NCBI RefSeq assembly: GCF_014836755.1
Contig: NZ_JACSQF010000002.1
Coordinates: 20,473 to 84,472, forward strand
Direction of reading: 5' to 3'
From: Oerskovia merdavium
GTDB taxonomy: Bacteria; Actinomycetota; Actinomycetes; Actinomycetales; Cellulomonadaceae
Length of the DNA: 64,000 nt
The translations under genes were made by a program, and so were the position numbers. This document shows, in pieces, positions 6,879 to 13,441 of this stretch. The first letter of the stretch is position 1. Each line of letters starts with the position of its first letter. The notes under the pieces were generated by a model. That model searched no databases. It was not told where the DNA came from and saw only the letters and a program-made list of their open reading frames with translations.

Positions 6879-7499
6879 GTGCGCTTGCGCCTCACCCCGC
6901 GCGATACCTCGTTCTTCGACCTTCTCGCTGACTCCGCGCAGCACCTGGTCACCGGGGCAAACCTTCTCGCCGAGCTGCTCGGCGCAGACCGGCCCACCCG
7001 CAAGGAGCTCGCCAAGAAGCTGGCCGAGACCGAGCACCTGGCTGACGACGCGACGCACACGATCATGCGGCGCCTCAACCAGACGTTCGTCACGCCGTTC
7101 GACCGCGACGACATCTACGGCCTCGCCTCCGCGCTCGACGACTGCATGGACTACATGGAAGAGGCCGCGGACCTCATCGTCCTGTACAAGATCGACGAGC
7201 TGCCCGCACGCGTCTCCGAGCAGGTCCAGGTCCTCCAGCGCGCGGCCGAGCTGACCGCAGAGGCCATGCCGCGCCTGCGCTCGCTCAACGACCTCGCCGA
7301 GTACTGGGTCGAGGTCAACCGCCTCGAGAACCAGGCCGACAAGATCCACCGCAAGCTCCTCGCCGAGCTCTTCGACAACGTCGCCGACCCGATCCTCCTC
7401 ATCAAGCTCAAGGAGGTCGTCGAGATCCTCGAGCAGGCCGCCGACGCGTTCGAGAAGGTCGCGAACACCGTCGAGACCATCGCGCTCAAGGAGTCCTGA
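6879..7499 (+). CDS. DUF47-family PhoU-like protein, partner of the PiT transporter
   Basis: A PhoU-like helical-bundle protein of the DUF47 (PF01865) family. Such proteins are regularly encoded just before PiT transporters and are thought to modulate phosphate or metal transport. The 206-residue length is normal. It starts RLRLTPRDTSFFDLLADSAQ, the usual N-terminus of actinobacterial members, and continues as amphipathic helices with an acidic region DCMDYMEEAADL near residue 90. I choose the GTG at 6879 because CCGGAG lies six bases before it; the in-frame GTG at 6840 is unsupported. The stop is six bases from the PiT start, so the genes form an operon. Confidence 0.9.
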   Translation: MRLRLTPRDTSFFDLLADSAQHLVTGANLLAELLGADRPTRKELAKKLAETEHLADDATHTIMRRLNQTFVTPFDRDDIYGLASALDDCMDYMEEAADLIVLYKIDELPARVSEQVQVLQRAAELTAEAMPRLRSLNDLAEYWVEVNRLENQADKIHRKLLAELFDNVADPILLIKLKEVVEILEQAADAFEKVANTVETIALKES

Positions 7500-7504
7500 G
7501 CTCC

Positions 7505-8509
7505 GTGGAATTCGCTCTTGTCGTCCTCGTCGTCGCGCTCGCGCTGAGCTTCGACTACACGAACGGATTCCACGACGCGGCCAACGCGATCGCGACGTCC
7601 GTCTCGACGCGCGCGCTCACCCCGCGCGCTGCCCTGCTCATGGCCGCGGTCATGAACTTCACCGGCGCGCTGCTCGGCACGGAGGTCGCGGAGACCATCG
7701 CGACCTCGATCGTCGACCTCCAGGACGTGCCATCGCACACGGCCCTGGTCGTGGTGCTGTGCGCCCTGATCGGGGCCATCGTCTGGAATCTCATCACCTG
7801 GTGGTTCGGGCTGCCGTCGTCCTCGACGCACGCCCTCATCGGTGGCCTCGTGGGCGCCGGCCTCGCCGGCGGGCTCGCGATCTACGGCCAGTCGATCATC
7901 GACAAGGTCGTCCTGCCGATGGTCTTCTCCCCGATCGTGGGCTTCGGCCTCGCGTTCGCCGTCATGGTCGGTCTGCTGTGGCTCTTCCGCCGCGCGGCGC
8001 CCTCCAAGACCACGCGCCGCTTCCGCCTCGCGCAGACCGTGTCCGCCGCAGCCATGGCCCTGGGCCACGGCCTCCAGGACGCGCAGAAGACCATGGGCGT
8101 CATCTTCATGGCGCTCCTCACGGTCGGCTGGGCCAGCCCCGACGAGGGCATCCCGCTGTGGGTCAAGCTCGCCGCAGCGGCCGCGATCTCCGCCGGGACG
8201 TACTCGGGCGGCTGGCGCATCATGCGGACCCTGGGACGCAAGATCATCGAGCTCGACCCGGCGCGCGGGTTCGTCGCCGAGTCCGTCTCCGCGATCGTGC
8301 TCTACGTCAACGCGTTCGCGCTGCACGCACCGGTCTCCACGACGCACACCATCACGTCCGCGATCATGGGTGTCGGCGCCACCAAGCGGCTGTCCGCCGT
8401 CCGGTGGGGCGTGGCGAAGAACATCGGCATCGCCTGGGTCCTGACCATCCCGGCCGCCGCCCTCGTGGCCGCGATCATGTACTGGATCCTGCACCCGATC
8501 CTGCTCTGA
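7505..8509 (+). CDS. PiT-family inorganic phosphate transporter
   Basis: Low-affinity symporter for phosphate (as neutral metal-phosphate) driven by protons, in the cytoplasmic membrane; PHO4 family, 334 residues with about ten helices. The N-terminal PiT repeat carries GFHDAANAIATSV near residues 20-32. The second repeat carries LYVNAFALHAPVSTTHTIT near residues 262-280. It begins at a GTG with AAGGAG inside the end of the DUF47 gene, so translation is coupled. The strong terminator at 8535 ends the operon. A polyphosphate kinase operon lies 1.5 kb away, beyond the inserted DUF559 cassette. Confidence 0.95.
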   Translation: MEFALVVLVVALALSFDYTNGFHDAANAIATSVSTRALTPRAALLMAAVMNFTGALLGTEVAETIATSIVDLQDVPSHTALVVVLCALIGAIVWNLITWWFGLPSSSTHALIGGLVGAGLAGGLAIYGQSIIDKVVLPMVFSPIVGFGLAFAVMVGLLWLFRRAAPSKTTRRFRLAQTVSAAAMALGHGLQDAQKTMGVIFMALLTVGWASPDEGIPLWVKLAAAAAISAGTYSGGWRIMRTLGRKIIELDPARGFVAESVSAIVLYVNAFALHAPVSTTHTITSAIMGVGATKRLSAVRWGVAKNIGIAWVLTIPAAALVAAIMYWILHPILL

Positions 8510-8534
8510 GGCTCCGCCTCGTCCGCGCGTTGCC

Positions 8535-8568
8535 AGGACCAGCGTGACCTTGAGGTCACGCTGGTCCT
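8535..8568 (+). terminator. Strong perfect-stem terminator after the PiT gene
   Basis: A 15-bp perfect stem, AGGACCAGCGTGACC with its complement, closes a TTGA loop and is followed by GCTGTTT. Its inner part is the same sequence as the core of the terminator at 2301. Confidence 0.9.
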
Positions 8569-8586
8569 GCTGTTTCCGGGGGATCA

Positions 8587-8632
8587 GTTGTCAGAACTGA
8601 GCCGGGGGATACCCGGGTGTGCTTCTGACAAC
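8587..8632 (+). repeat. 46-bp REP-like palindrome, copy 1 (downstream side of DUF559 gene)
   Basis: The outer arms GTTGTCAGAA and TTCTGACAAC form a perfect 10-bp stem, with a smaller inner stem CCGGG/CCCGG around GGATA. It is one base different from copy 2 at 8672-8717. Confidence 0.9.
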
Positions 8633-8671
8633 TTTGCTGGTGATGTGGCCTGACCGACGTTGCACTGCTTG

Positions 8672-8717
8672 GTTGTCAGAACTGAGCCGGGGGATACCCC
8701 GGTGTGCTTCTGACAAC
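8672..8717 (+). repeat. 46-bp REP-like palindrome, copy 2, abutting the DUF559 stop codon
   Basis: Same orientation as copy 1 and nearly identical; 39 bp separate them. Its last base is shared with the TAG stop codon of the minus-strand DUF559 gene (8717-8719), so the palindrome starts exactly where the coding region ends. Confidence 0.9.
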
Positions 8718-9670
8718 TACGCGGAAGTCTCCTGCGCTGCCGACCCGAGATGGTGCCGGAGGATGTCGTAGACCCGGTCCGGCTCCAACCGGACGGCACC
8801 AGCAGGGACCCTGACGACGATGTCCCGCCTGCTCGCGTCGAGCTCGGCCGTGCGCAACAGGTCCTCGTACCAACGGTCCGGATCGCTGTGGCCGATCCCG
8901 TCGACCTCGACCACCAACCGACGCCCGTCGCGGAGCCGCCACTCGATGTCGAGGTAGCGCTGGCGTCCCTGCGAGTCCTTGCGTCGCGCCTGCCGTTCAG
9001 GGGCGGGCAGGTCGCGCTCGCGGCAGAACCTGATGAAGTCGATCTCGGCCAAGGACTGCGAACCGCCGGCGATGTCGACGAGCGAGGTGCGCATGACGCT
9101 CCGGAAGCGGACGGCGCCCACCCGATCGAGCTGTTCGAAGAGCTCGTCGGTCGTGGCCAGCCCCTGCTGGACGGTGGCGGCGAGCAGACCGACGGCGGTG
9201 CGGGGGTGTCGTTGCCACGCAGCTGCGTCGACCGCAGCGCGCGGCGCCGTGTGGACAGGGAGCCCGAGGAACGGACGGATGTCCTCGGGCGCCGGGCGGC
9301 GAGACTCGTGGACGACGACGGCGGAGACTCGTGGGGGCCTCGCCCCACGAGCGACGACGATGTGGATCCCCGGCCGGGTCCAGCCCGTCAGCCCGCGCAT
9401 CGACAGTGCGGACCACGAGCCGATGGCGACCGTCCCCTGTGCGCTCAGCACCGCGATCCATCGCCGGGCCGGCTCGGTGACAGGGCCGTTGTGAAGCAGG
9501 ACGACATCGCGGGTTGCGAGCGTCCACCGTCGCGCAGCCAGCTGTGCGCTCACGTGGTCCCAGGAGACGCCCAGCCCCCGCAGCTGCTTCCGGGTCACCA
9601 CTCCTTCCTGGTAGTGGTTGATCCGGTGCAGGCCCGGGACTGACTCCAACGCGTCCGACGTTCCGCTCAT
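8717..9670 (-). CDS. AbiEi-like N-domain + DUF559 (Vsr-like) nuclease-fold protein
   Basis: A 317-residue two-domain protein. Residues about 10-65 (HYQEGVVTRKQLRGLGVSWD onward) look like the winged-helix domain of AbiEi-type antitoxins. Residues about 215-310 match the DUF559 domain of the PD-(D/E)XK/Vsr-like fold, with acidic residues in RYLDIEWRL and VVEVDGIGH as the likely metal site. Such orphan genes are common in actinomycetes, annotated as 'type IV toxin-antitoxin AbiEi domain' or 'endonuclease domain' proteins; activity is unproven. No AbiEii toxin gene is adjacent. The start is ATG 9670 with a weak ribosome site. Two copies of a 46-bp palindrome lie on each side in opposite orientation, suggesting mobility. 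Confidence 0.82.
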   Translation of the reverse strand: MSGTSDALESVPGLHRINHYQEGVVTRKQLRGLGVSWDHVSAQLAARRWTLATRDVVLLHNGPVTEPARRWIAVLSAQGTVAIGSWSALSMRGLTGWTRPGIHIVVARGARPPRVSAVVVHESRRPAPEDIRPFLGLPVHTAPRAAVDAAAWQRHPRTAVGLLAATVQQGLATTDELFEQLDRVGAVRFRSVMRTSLVDIAGGSQSLAEIDFIRFCRERDLPAPERQARRKDSQGRQRYLDIEWRLRDGRRLVVEVDGIGHSDPDRWYEDLLRTAELDASRRDIVVRVPAGAVRLEPDRVYDILRHHLGSAAQETSA

Positions 9671-9788
9671 GCCGGGGATTCTTGGCGGCCGCGACGTCGG
9701 GCGTCAGGGGGGACGCGGTCGTCTGTGGACGAAGGACGCAGTGAGTGCGCGGTGCACGCCGTCGAACGGTGCGATTCCACCGCCGCCG

Positions 9789-9834
9789 GTTGTCAGAGCT
9801 CGCCCGGGGTATGGCCCGGCTCAGTTCTGACAAC
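9789..9834 (-). repeat. 46-bp REP-like palindrome, copy 3 (upstream side of DUF559 gene)
   Basis: Reverse orientation relative to copies 1 and 2. Read on the minus strand it begins GTTGTCAGAACTGAGCCGGG, identical to the first 20 bases of copy 1, and ends CTGACAAC. The inner bases differ from copies 1/2 at several positions. Confidence 0.9.
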
Positions 9835-9881
9835 TGGAGCGGGTGAGCTGGGGATCACTGGGGTGCTCCGCCTGGGCATGA

Positions 9882-9927
9882 GTTGTCAGAGCTCGCCCGG
9901 GGTATGGCCCGGCTCAGTTCTGACAAC
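9882..9927 (-). repeat. 46-bp REP-like palindrome, copy 4
   Basis: Identical to copy 3 over all 46 bases and in the same orientation, 47 bp away. Confidence 0.9.
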
Positions 9928-9961
9928 AAAGCGGTGGCCGTCCCAGGTGCTCGGATTCGCT

Positions 9962-10009
9962 CCGAGCTTCCGAGCTTCCGAGCTTCCGAGCCTCCGAGCC
10001 TCCGAGCCT
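9962..10009. repeat. Six tandem octamers CCGAGCYT downstream of mutT1
   Basis: Three copies of CCGAGCTT are followed by three of CCGAGCCT without interruption, then a degenerate CTGGGCTC. The array ends 77 nt past the mutT1 stop. It is the first of three arrays with an 8-bp period in this window. Confidence 0.92.
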
Positions 10010-10085
10010 CTGGGCTCCCGAGGCGTACGAGCGAGCCCACTCCCTGGCTTCGACACAGGGACCGAGCACACACCACCGGCCCACC

Positions 10086-11111
10086 TCAGTGCAGCGGCGG
10101 CGCGACCTTCTCTGCCGCGAGCACGCGCGGCCCCTTGGGGGTGTCCGCGACGTGCGCCACGAGCATCTCTCCCGGCTCCAGGAACGGGTCCCGTGTCGGC
10201 AGGGCGTTGGCCACGGGGCGGCGTGAGTGCTGACCCAGGACGTCGAGGACCGTGGGCAGGACGGGCCGGTGCGTGCAGAGCACGGTCGACCGCTGCGACT
10301 CGAGCAGCTCGCGCACGGTGCGCGCAACCCGCGAGGGGGACCGCTCGTGCTGCGCCTCGGTCAGGTGGTCGATCGAGAGGGTCTCGAGCCGGGCGGCCTG
10401 CGCGTAGGGCGCGATGGTCTGGGCACAGCGGTCCCACTGGCTCGTCACCACGGTGTTGACCCCGTAGGCCGCGAGCACGGGGACCAGTGCGACGGACTGC
10501 GCGTGCCCGGCGGGCGTGAGCGGCCGGTCCTGCTCGGCCCCGTGCCATGCGGCCCGGGTCACGGCCTTGCCGTGCCGGGCGATCACGACGACGCGGGTCG
10601 AGAGCCGTCCGTGCGTGTACTCCTCGACGAGCGCGGCGAGCGGACCGCGGTCTGCCTTGCGGGTCACCCGGCGTGCGGCCTCCTCGACGCCGAGCCACTC
10701 GGTCGCGTCGATCTCGTCGGGCGACACCGGGGGCACGGGGGCGCGCGCGGCGAGCGGGCCCGCGTCGCGCACGCGCTTGGCCTGCTGCGCAGCCCAGTAG
10801 TGCACGCGCTTCACGCGCCCCTCCGGGGTCAGGTACTGCAGCCCGGGCAGCGGGACGCCGAGGATCACGGGCTTGCCGGTCTCCTCGGCGACCTCGCGCA
10901 CGGCGGCGGTCTGGAAGGTCTCGCCCGGGTCGAGCTTGCCCTTGGGCCACGACCAGTCGTCGTAGCGCGGCCGGTGGACGAGCCGTACCTGCAGCTCACC
11001 GTCGCGCACGCGCCACACGAGCCCTCCCGCCGACTCGATCACGGGGGCGTGCGGGACGTGGGTGGGGCCGAGGGTGTCCACGAGCGGTGCGAACGAGGAC
11101 GGAGAGCTCAT
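10086..11111 (-). CDS. mutT1: MutT1-like NUDIX hydrolase fused to a histidine phosphatase domain
   Basis: Probably sanitises oxidised nucleotides (8-oxo-GTP/dGTP) and may act on diadenosine polyphosphates, as its mycobacterial counterpart MutT1 does. The NUDIX box runs from G58 ([10 protein letters not shown], then REVAEETG to about residue 79). The C-terminal half is a histidine-phosphatase domain opening with the RHG motif at 179-181 and containing CTHRPVLP further on. The two-domain layout and the 341-residue length match MutT1. The ATG overlaps the ppk stop (ATGA), so it is the last gene of mshD-ppk-mutT1. Confidence 0.9.
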
Positions 11112-13441
11112 TGACCCATGCCCAGACGACGGCGTTGTCGGGTGATGAGGGTCGACTGGATGTCGGTCAGGGCCCCGTCGGGTCCGGTCGAGTGCCGCAC
11201 CCAGGTCCCGTCCGCCTGCAGGTGCCACGACGCGGTCCCGCTGTCCATCGAGATGTCGATGAGGTCGAGCAGGTTCGTGATCTGGTCCGGGTCGACGAGC
11301 CGCACGAGCGTCTCGACGCGGCGGTCGAGGTTCCGGTGCATGAGGTCGGCCGACCCGATGAAGACCTCGGGGCCGGACTCTGGGCCGTCCGCGATGGCCG
11401 GGCCGCCCGAGTTGGCGAACGCGAAGATGCGCGAGTGCTCGAGGAACCGGCCCAGGATGGACCGCACGCGGATGTTCTCGCTGAGCCCGGGCACCCCGGG
11501 GCGGATCGCGCAGATGCCGCGGACCACGAGGTCCACCTTCACCCCGGCCTGCGAGGCTCGGTACAGGGCGTCGATGATGGTCTCGTCGACGACCGAGTTG
11601 ACCTTGAACTTGACCCACGCGTCGCGGCCCTCGCGGGCTGCGACGGCCTCGCGCTCGATCCGTTCGACGAGGCCCGAGCGCACCGAGCGGGGCGCGACGA
11701 GCAGCCGGTGGAACCTCGACTGGGGTGCGTAGCCGCTCAGCTGGTTGAACAGGCGCGTGAGGTCCTGGCCGACCTCGGGGTCCGCGGTGAGCAGCCCGAG
11801 GTCCGTGTAGAGGCGCGCGGTCTTGGGGTTGTAGTTGCCCGTGCCCACGTGGCAGTAGCGCACGAGCCCCTCGGGCTCCTGGCGGACCACGAGCGAGAGC
11901 TTGCAGTGCGTCTTGAGGCCGACGATCCCGTACACGACGTGCACGCCCGCCTGCTCGAGCTTGCGTGCCCACGAGATGTTGGCCTGCTCGTCGAAGCGCG
12001 CCTTGATCTCGACCAGGGCGAGGACCTGCTTGCCGGCCTCGGCCGCGTCGATCAGGGCGTCGACGATCGGCGAGTCGCCCGACGTCCGGTACAGCGTCTG
12101 CTTGATCGCGAGCACGTTGGGGTCCGCGGCAGCCTGCTGGAGGAACGTCTGGACCGAGGTCGAGAACGAGTCGTACGGGTGGTGCAGCAGGATGTCGCGC
12201 TCACGGATCGCGGCGAACACGTCGGTCGGGTTGGCGCTCTCCACCTCGGCGAGGAAACGGTGCGTGGTCGGCACGAACCGCGGGTAGTGCAGGTCCGCGC
12301 GGTCCAGGTCGGCGATGAGGTTGAGGCCCGTGAAGTCGAGCGGCGCGGGCAGCTTGTAGACCTCGTCGTCCGCGACGTCGAGCTCGCGCACGAGCAGCTG
12401 GCGGATGCGCGGGCTGATCCCGTCGGCGATCTCGAGGCGCACGGGCGGGCCGAACCGGCGACGCAGCAGCTCCTTCTCCATGGCCTGGAGCAGGTTCTCC
12501 GCGTCGTCCTCCTCGACCTCGACGTCCTCGTTGCGGGTCACGCGGAACGTGTGGTGCTCGCGCACCTCCATGCCCGGGAAGAGGTGGTCGAGGTGCTGGG
12601 AGATGACGTCCTCGAGCGGCACGAACGACGTGGGGCCCTTGTCGGGGTCTGCGGCCTGCGTGCTGGGTGCCGACGGGCGGCCGCGCGAGTCGACCGCGAT
12701 GAAGCGCGGCAGCAGCGGCGGCACCTTGACGCGCGCGAAGTGCTCCTTGCCCGTCGTCGGGTTCACCACGACGACCGCGAGGTTGAGCGAGAGCCCCGAG
12801 ATGTACGGGAAGGGGTGCGCGGGGTCCACGGCCAGGGGCGTGAGCACGGGGAAGATCTGCTTGCGGAAGAACTTGTGCAGGCGCTCCTGCTCGCGCGTGT
12901 CGAGGTCCTCCCAGCGCAGCAGCGAGATGCCCTCGGTCGCCAGCGCGGGCTGCACCTGGTCGGCGAACACCGCGGCGTGGCGGGCCATGAGCTCGTGCGC
13001 ACGCTCGCTGATCGCGTCGAGCACCTGGCGCGGCGTGAGACCGGAGGCGGCCGTCACGGCGAGCCCGGTCGCGATGCGTCGCTTGAGCCCTGCGACCCGG
13101 ACCATGAAGAACTCGTCGAGGTTCGACGCGAAGATCGCGAGGTAGCGCACGCGCTCCAGCAGGGGCTGGTTCTCGTCCTCGGCGAGCTCGAGCACGCGCT
13201 GGTTGAACGCGAGCCAGCTCAGCTCGCGGTCCGCGAACCGGTCGGCGGGCAGGGGCTCGGCACTGAGCACCTCCTTGTCGACGGTCCCCGTGACGGGCTC
13301 CTCCTCGGCGATGTGCTCGGCGATGTGCGCCGCGAGCTCAGGGTCGAGGGCGGGCCGGGGACGGGCGTCGCGAGAAGCCTCCGGCTGCTGGTCCGGGCGC
13401 GCGGGGGTCCGGACGCCGGGACGGACGGTGGAGTCGGTCAT
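11108..13441 (-). CDS. ppk: Polyphosphate kinase PPK1
   Basis: Reversibly transfers the terminal phosphate of ATP to polyphosphate. At 777 residues it is slightly longer than E. coli Ppk because of an N-terminal Pro-rich extension. The N-terminal domain shows [17 protein letters not shown] and [17 protein letters not shown]. The catalytic region has [13 protein letters not shown], holding the histidine expected to be phosphorylated, and a second conserved His in [30 protein letters not shown] is also typical. ATG 13441 overlaps the mshD stop (ATGA), and the gene's own stop overlaps the mutT1 ATG in the same way. It lies near the PiT phosphate genes. Confidence 0.97.

What the first reader, a model, noticed from the sequence alone, without database searches (positions are those of the whole stretch)
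8587..9927. DUF559/AbiEi-like gene bracketed by inverted pairs of a 46-bp palindrome: a possible REPtron-like mobile unit
Four palindromes were seen directly. Copies 1 and 2 (one mismatch between them) follow the gene; copies 3 and 4 (identical) precede it in the opposite orientation, and all share GTTGTCAGA/TCTGACAAC ends. Copy 2 begins at the last base of the stop codon. RAYT transposases flanked by inverted REPs are the known precedent, but this gene encodes a Vsr-like nuclease fold with an AbiEi-type N-domain. I infer that the protein recognises the palindrome and spreads or maintains it. The unit interrupts the region between the PiT and ppk operons.
Basis: partly seen in the sequence, partly recalled or inferred. 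Interest (0 to 1): 0.82.

Follow-up and report, generated by a model that had tools for sequence, protein, structure and literature searches.

The report
Nuclease genes with travelling palindromes
In many actinobacteria a gene for a predicted DNA-reading nuclease sits between copies of its own private 46-base palindrome; in the lineages searched that palindrome also lies elsewhere in the genome, at places where a sister species has none, so the protein likely spreads its own landing sites, which would make this a new kind of minimal mobile DNA.

Summary
Matching palindromes bracket 80 of 98 family loci, against 11 of 333 control window pairs. Palindrome sequence is private to each gene and follows the protein. 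Cognate copies are dispersed: 9 exact ones in this genome, 1-200 in relatives. Of 14 Oerskovia enterophila sites with an alignable counterpart here, none carries the palindrome here; two gains lie in frame inside coding genes.

The protein is predicted to be an AbiEi-type DNA reader fused to a Vsr/EDxHD-type nuclease with invariant acidic residues. Published AbiEi operators are pairs of 23-bp inverted repeats (PMC7319586), and 46 = 2 x 23.

Two results set it apart from RAYT/REP: the arms of a palindrome do not covary (162 palindromes), and neighbouring palindromes are mostly helically phased, 61.5 + 10.5n bp. Both point to protein on duplex DNA, not a hairpin. The inverted layout holds here but not family-wide (48 direct, 25 inverted, 7 ties).

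Best reading: a REPtron-like mobile system run by an unrelated nuclease. Binding, cutting and mobility are untested.

The parts
8717..9670 (-). 317-aa gene, predicted AbiEi-type DNA reader fused to a Vsr/EDxHD-type nuclease
   Evidence: Open frame with ATG start; fold comparison; one copy by protein search of the genome
9068..9670 (-). Residues 1-201: predicted AbiEi antitoxin-like part (DNA-binding N domain plus C domain)
8732..9061 (-). Residues 204-313: predicted Vsr/EDxHD-type nuclease, E209, D241, E255, D257 invariant in 22 diverse members
8587..8632 (+). Palindrome copy 1 (gene 3' side, outer)
8672..8717 (+). Palindrome copy 2 (gene 3' side, abuts the stop codon); 85 bp from copy 1
9789..9834 (-). 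Palindrome copy 3 (gene 5' side, first base 119 bp beyond the start codon)
9882..9927 (-). Palindrome copy 4 (gene 5' side, outer); 93 bp from copy 3
8529..8574 (.). Likely worn remnant of the other (type B) palindrome of the genus, behind pit; it may now act as a terminator
   Evidence: Core ACCAGCGTGACCT..AGGTCACGCTGGT matches type-B palindromes of G043 and G059; strong hairpin, z -5.0

Best explanation
The gene and the palindromes around it likely form a self-contained mobile system in which a predicted AbiEi-type DNA reader fused to a Vsr/EDxHD-type nuclease would bind each 46-bp palindrome as two inverted 23-bp half-sites in duplex DNA and, by cutting DNA, spread palindromes to new places. 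Shown by sequence: the bracketing of the genes, a private palindrome sequence for each, its dispersal, its presence at sites where relatives have none, independence of the two arms, and helical phasing of neighbouring palindromes. Predicted: the two-domain fold and an active nuclease. Inferred: binding by a dimer, contact between dimers on neighbouring palindromes, cleavage, and that this protein rather than another enzyme drives the gains. The upstream copy probably also serves as an autoregulatory operator, as in AbiEi systems. How copies are made is open; the nearest precedent for the nuclease is break-induced copying as in homing.
For: Bracketing: 80 of 98 loci against 11 of 333 control pairs, Fisher 1.7e-56. 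Palindrome similarity follows protein similarity: fraction alike 0.00 in each bin below 30% protein identity (1641 pairs), 13 of 13 pairs at 80% or more. Copies accompany the gene: 22 of 22 against 16 of 128 genomes; the Nocardioides type in 10 of 10 genomes whose gene carries it and in 1 of 22 others. Gains: 14 O. enterophila sites with a counterpart in this genome, palindrome in none of the counterparts; net 45 bp and 165 bp in-frame gains. Duplex reading: no arm covariation, 0.625 against 0.629 +- 0.009, n = 162; 62 of 69 spacings on a 61.5 + 10.5n ladder. Fold: AbiEi plus EDxHD, whose known sites are 2 x 23 bp (PMC7319586, passages) and nearly 60 bp for a dimer (PMC3943268, passages). Invariant acidic residues. 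Held-out case: a 32.6% homologue in a record found later is bracketed too.
Against: No binding, cutting or movement was measured. 18 of 98 loci fail the pair test, among them one of this genome's four family members (L202); about 3% of the passes should be chance, and L205 looks like one. 16 of 128 genomes without a close homologue still have 6 or more copies; gene loss is assumed. This genome has 12 and O. enterophila 60 TGTCAG-type copies though the proteins are 97% identical. Many of the 14 counterparts align on one flank only or lie in reshaped intergenic DNA; only two gains are clear, and no target duplication was seen. The nuclease could act elsewhere, for example in repair. One hairpin (S6) is kept in most of the genus with paired changes, so some copies may be host hairpins. 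Arm similarity was above chance in one of ten sets (G052, n = 9, p 0.023) and in this genome before duplicates and S6 were dropped (p 0.019).
Confidence: 0.6

Rival explanations
1. Autoregulator with scattered operators: the protein is an AbiEi-like repressor or chromosome-organising protein, the palindromes are its binding sites, kept because they regulate neighbours, and the nuclease domain has another job.
For: AbiEi proteins bind pairs of 23-bp inverted repeats in their promoters (PMC7319586, passages). The upstream copy is centred a median 145 bp before the start codon. Arms behave as independent half-sites and spacings are helically phased.
Against: A copy also lies behind the gene (median 66 bp after the match end); copy number ranges from 0 to 200 within one family; copies have entered coding genes in frame; nuclease residues are invariant. 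It would explain binding but not the gains.
Confidence: 0.2
2. Defence nuclease: an AbiEi-nuclease that attacks invading DNA, with its own palindromes used as storage, control or self-marking sites.
For: PADLOC AbiEi match; Vsr-type nuclease fold.
Against: No partner toxin or methylase among the neighbours tested; a steady 46-49-bp site on both sides of the gene and recent spread of copies are not expected of defence genes.
Confidence: 0.1
3. Hitch-hiking: the palindromes are miniature elements moved by some other enzyme, and the gene is a passenger.
For: Palindromes persist in genomes without a close homologue (16 of 128).
Against: Each palindrome family tracks its own gene across at least 80 loci and copies accompany the gene.
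Confidence: 0.07
4. A classical REP-type hairpin element or RNA terminator, acting as a folded single strand.
For: Single strands fold well, z -5.4 to -6.3 for three of the copies; doublets resemble REPINs.
Against: Arms do not covary; no HUH transposase in fold or family matches; no Rfam match and no terminator-like site by consensus scan.
Confidence: 0.03

Closest known systems
RAYT transposases with REP/REPIN elements (REPtrons)
   Same: A gene bracketed by short palindromes, dispersed mostly non-coding copies and doublets, co-evolution, and a gene that changes faster than its neighbours (traits of RAYT/REP: PMC2817692 and PMC3116915, passages).
   Different: The enzyme is predicted to be an AbiEi-Vsr/EDxHD fusion, not a HUH tyrosine transposase; arms do not covary; flanking copies are not consistently inverted; 46 bp with no GTAG tag.
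AbiEi antitoxins and their operators (AbiE type IV toxin-antitoxin)
   Same: Predicted AbiEi fold over residues 1-201; a site of two 23-bp inverted repeats near the promoter (PMC7319586, passages).
   Different: No AbiEii toxin gene among the neighbours tested; a nuclease domain is fused on; sites also lie behind the gene and are dispersed over the genome.
EDxHD (Vsr-like) homing endonucleases, I-Bth0305I
   Different: Not set in an intron, intein or conserved gene; carries its candidate site on both flanks; the site itself multiplies.
CGTC REPs and Rickettsia RPEs
   Same: Short palindromes, some in frame inside coding genes (PMC3733652, passages).
   Different: That paper reports no dedicated enzyme for them; no sequence relation to ours was tested.

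Membership tests
RAYT/REP (REPtron) | HUH tyrosine transposase encoded by the bracketed gene | tested here: not met
   Pfam and PADLOC matches are AbiEi, DUF559 or MTES_1575 REase, none a transposase; best fold matches are AbiEi and EDxHD nucleases
RAYT/REP (REPtron) | Two flanking palindromes in inverted orientation | tested here: not met
   Met in the window (9 mismatches inverted, 13 direct) but across 80 loci 48 direct, 25 inverted, 7 tied
RAYT/REP (REPtron) | Palindrome arms kept complementary by paired changes | tested here: not met
   Within-palindrome arm identity 0.625 against 0.629 +- 0.009 for random pairing, 162 palindromes in 10 sets
RAYT/REP (REPtron) | GTAG tag at one end | tested here: not met
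   Ends read GTTGTCAG/CTGACAAC here and other sequences elsewhere
RAYT/REP (REPtron) | Many dispersed copies that accompany the gene | tested here: met
RAYT/REP (REPtron) | Gene and palindrome co-evolve | tested here: met
   Palindrome similarity follows protein identity, Spearman 0.45 over 3160 pairs
AbiE type IV toxin-antitoxin | AbiEi fold | tested here: met
AbiE type IV toxin-antitoxin | Adjacent AbiEii (DUF1814) toxin gene | tested here: not met
   The four neighbour genes scanned are PhoU_div, PHO4, NUDIX/His_Phos and PP_kinase
AbiE type IV toxin-antitoxin | Protein binds pairs of 23-bp inverted repeats upstream of its gene | not testable with these tools
   The geometry fits (46 = 2 x 23, upstream copy present); binding needs the bench
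EDxHD homing endonuclease | EDxHD/Vsr-type nuclease fold with conserved acidic residues | tested here: met
EDxHD homing endonuclease | Cuts an allele that lacks the element and is copied into it | not testable with these tools
   Sites without the element exist; no cleavage data
Miniature transposon of an ordinary insertion sequence | Target-site duplication at insertions | tested here: inconclusive
   None seen at the L273 site compared with L287 and L288, but flanks have diverged

The most novel reading that the evidence does not exclude
A new class of minimal mobile DNA in actinomycetes: a homing-type nuclease has taken over the AbiEi antitoxin's operator logic, reads two 23-bp half-sites per palindrome in duplex DNA, pairs palindromes on one face of the helix, and copies its own binding sites around the genome. 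Genomes carry up to nine relatives of the gene, many with a private palindrome family, so several mutually independent systems coexist and can replace one another at a fixed locus.
Probability: 0.5. Interest if true: 0.92.

Novelty: categorically new. Interest (0 to 1): 0.85.

Why it matters
RAYTs are the dedicated enzymes known for REP palindromes, and whole repeat classes (CGTC REPs, including some Rickettsia RPEs) are reported without one (PMC3733652, passages). An unrelated nuclease tied to many private palindrome families would show that this lifestyle arose more than once and by another chemistry. It would also give a role to AbiEi-nuclease fusion genes that databases often call hypothetical. 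Each protein-palindrome pair is a natural experiment in how a DNA reader and a roughly 46-bp site change together, and dozens of such pairs can be tested directly by binding assays.

Tried and rejected
RAYT/REP membership was rejected on enzyme, arms, tag and orientation. RNA element: no Rfam match in 7000-12000, no terminator-like site in 8450-10100. Plasmids: no match among 72,556 records. Phages: 1 unverified, unannotated record of 50,697. Sequence relatives in the PDB: none at E up to 1.

Literature: searches for DUF559 with palindromes; REPIN and RAYT with actinobacteria; interspersed palindromes with Cellulomonas; Vsr, endonuclease and DUF559 with palindromic repeats; AbiEi with DUF559; palindromic repeats with Nocardioides; and MTES_1575 listed no paper that I recognised as tying this gene family to a repeat (listings, plus passages of PMC12907096 and PMC3710099). 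The library holds no bioRxiv and few subscription journals.

Tests that gave little or were replaced: the first flank test took the single best palindrome on each side (60 of 90 loci, 0 of 204 controls) and missed this very gene, because the hairpin behind pit scored higher; the pair search replaced it. Mutual information within arms was only slightly above that between arms. The frame test flagged 4 of 36 sites as coding and missed the S2 copy that one search shows in frame. Two fetched O. enterophila sites (L267, L276) had only short matches and were not aligned. Of the nine sites, S3, S4 and S9 align poorly outside O. enterophila. The arm test used capped listings: 30 of 35 listed palindromes for G154, 17 of 20 for G157, 11 of 12 for G049 (one of another type left out); duplicates were dropped in the others. 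Some of the 98 loci are close relatives (13 pairs at 80% protein identity or more). 3 of 93 loci without full flanks were left out; the same length rule was applied.

Full report
Observation. The window holds a 317-aa gene on the minus strand (8717-9670) with two 46-bp near-palindromes on each side. Copies 1 and 2 differ by one base, copies 3 and 4 are identical, and 16-17 of 23 positions pair. The 4.49-Mb genome has 9 copies with exact ends TTGTCAGA/TCTGACAA, 4 here and 5 elsewhere, with 0 for the reversed control, and 15 within 3 mismatches, control 0.

A family-wide association. I took 98 family loci with enough flank, from named genomes and unnamed ones, and looked for the best-matching pair of near-palindromes, one on each side. 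In 80 of 98 the pair is at least 62% identical; in same-size window pairs elsewhere in these loci 11 of 333 are (Fisher 1.7e-56). At 70% or more the count is 72 of 98, above the highest control, 0.69. The element is 46-49 bp in the examples read, but its sequence is private: GGGTAGGTGAGCGAGGGCCATGG..., GTCCACGAGCGTGACCGTGCACGG..., GCCTAAGTTTCTTCGCTTTG.... Palindromes of two loci resemble each other only when the proteins do: fraction 0.00 in each bin below 30% protein identity (1641 pairs), 0.22 at 50-60%, 13 of 13 at 80% or more. A homologue of 32.6% identity, found later in an unannotated record, is bracketed by its own palindrome. This genome has four family members by profile. This gene, L204 and L210 pass the pair test with three unrelated palindromes (0.81, 0.78, 1.00); L202 does not.

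Dispersal. Among 150 genomes of the family, 58 contain TGTCAG-N30-CTGACA, with 1 to 200 copies; the reversed control hits 1 genome once. All 22 genomes with a homologue of 50% identity or more have at least 6 copies; 16 of the other 128 do (Fisher 1.7e-16). All 16 hold more distant members by profile, one of them only weakly; loss of a cognate gene is assumed. The Nocardioides type GTCGTGTGCC...GGCACACGAC occurs in 10 of 10 genomes whose gene is flanked by it (1-79 copies) and in 1 of the 22 other genomes searched, control 0.

Gain and turnover. At the pit-NUDIX site of seven Oerskovia genomes, two carry this gene, two a 57%-identical gene with type-B palindromes, one only type-B remnants with nearly the same spacer as G059, and two about 3.7 and 6.0 kb of other sequence. 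The flanking genes match at 86-93% DNA identity, so gene and palindrome change much faster than their surroundings. Of nine dispersed sites compared, S1 holds type A in the two gene-A genomes and type B in G043, G059 and G085; S7 holds type A in the gene-A genomes and type B in G043, but nothing in G059; S5 is shared with gene-less G073; S2, S4 and S8 are seen in the gene-A genomes only. From O. enterophila I took 20 sites and aligned 18 to this genome or G073. Fourteen had a counterpart here: none has the palindrome, one has a degenerate trace; many align on one flank only. Two cases are clear: a net 45 bp (one palindrome) in frame in one coding gene, and a net 165 bp (a doublet) in frame in a gene I read as a sensor kinase, each also absent from G073. 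A further copy is in frame in another kinase-like gene of both gene-A genomes. A crude frame test puts 32 of 36 sites outside long coding-like frames.

What form of DNA is read. If a hairpin mattered, the arms of one palindrome should resemble each other more than arms drawn at random from the same genome. They do not: 0.625 against 0.629 +- 0.009 for 162 palindromes in ten sets; only G052 (n = 9) stands out, p 0.023. So each arm behaves as an independent match to a half-site. In O. enterophila the half-site reaches outward, C at +5 in 46 of 52 flanks. Neighbouring palindromes are spaced, start to start, at 61-62, 71-73, 82-83, 92-95 and 104 bp: 62 of the 69 spacings between 55 and 110 bp lie within 1.5 bp of 61.5 + 10.5n (11 further spacings are shorter or longer). 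Counting each value once per group, phasing at 10.2-10.8 bp was not reached in 5000 random draws. Off the ladder are 59, 64, 85 (also the window's downstream pair), 95 and 108. Fixed doublet spacing alone is not unique, since REPINs show 71 and 110 bp (PMC3116915, passages); the ladder and the independent arms are what point to protein on duplex DNA.

Mechanism. Two solved relatives predict such a site. AbiEi binds two 23-bp inverted repeats 3 bp apart and Rv2827c binds two such pairs (PMC7319586, passages); 46 is 2 x 23. I-Bth0305I dimerises on nearly 60 bp (PMC3943268, passages). I propose that a dimer reads each palindrome, that dimers on neighbouring palindromes meet on one face of the helix, and that cutting by the nuclease domains lets palindromes be copied or inserted elsewhere, the upstream copy also serving as operator. 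Binding, cutting and copying are inference.

Comparison. It works like RAYT/REP but is not a member: enzyme, arms, tag and orientation fail (membership table). It is not an AbiE toxin-antitoxin pair, since none of the neighbours scanned is a toxin. It shares the predicted nuclease fold of EDxHD homing enzymes but lies between ordinary genes. I rate it categorically new as a system because it fails a defining feature of each known system tested. If mobility fails in the laboratory it becomes an AbiEi-type regulator with an unusual set of sites, a new variant of a known kind.

Noticed in passing
window 9960-10022: Tandem array of an 8-bp unit (TCCGAGCT, 7.8 copies) directly behind palindrome copy 4.
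   Followed up: no
window 8529-8574: Hairpin behind pit whose core equals the type-B palindromes of O. turbata and O. jenensis relatives: a likely trace of an earlier gene B at this locus.
   Followed up: partly
L210 (G000 C11:363656-364387) and L204 (G000 C22:182316-183089), outside the window: Two more family members of this genome, bracketed by unrelated palindromes: AGTGAGCAGATGCCCC... (identical both sides) and CGTGCAGTTCGGG...CCCGAACTGCACG.
   Followed up: partly
G000 C17:7236-7281 (L021) and orthologous sites: A hairpin kept at one place in most of seven Oerskovia genomes while its sequence changes on both arms; it may be a terminator rather than a mobile copy.
   Followed up: no
L397 (MT837139.1, unverified 'Bacteriophage sp.' from faeces): A 32.6% homologue bracketed by its own palindrome GTCGGTGATGCA...TGCATCACCG; the record may be a bacterial contig.
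   Followed up: partly
G023 C18:51724-51843: A fragment of the gene (37 residues, 76% identical) far from the intact copy in O. enterophila.
   Followed up: no
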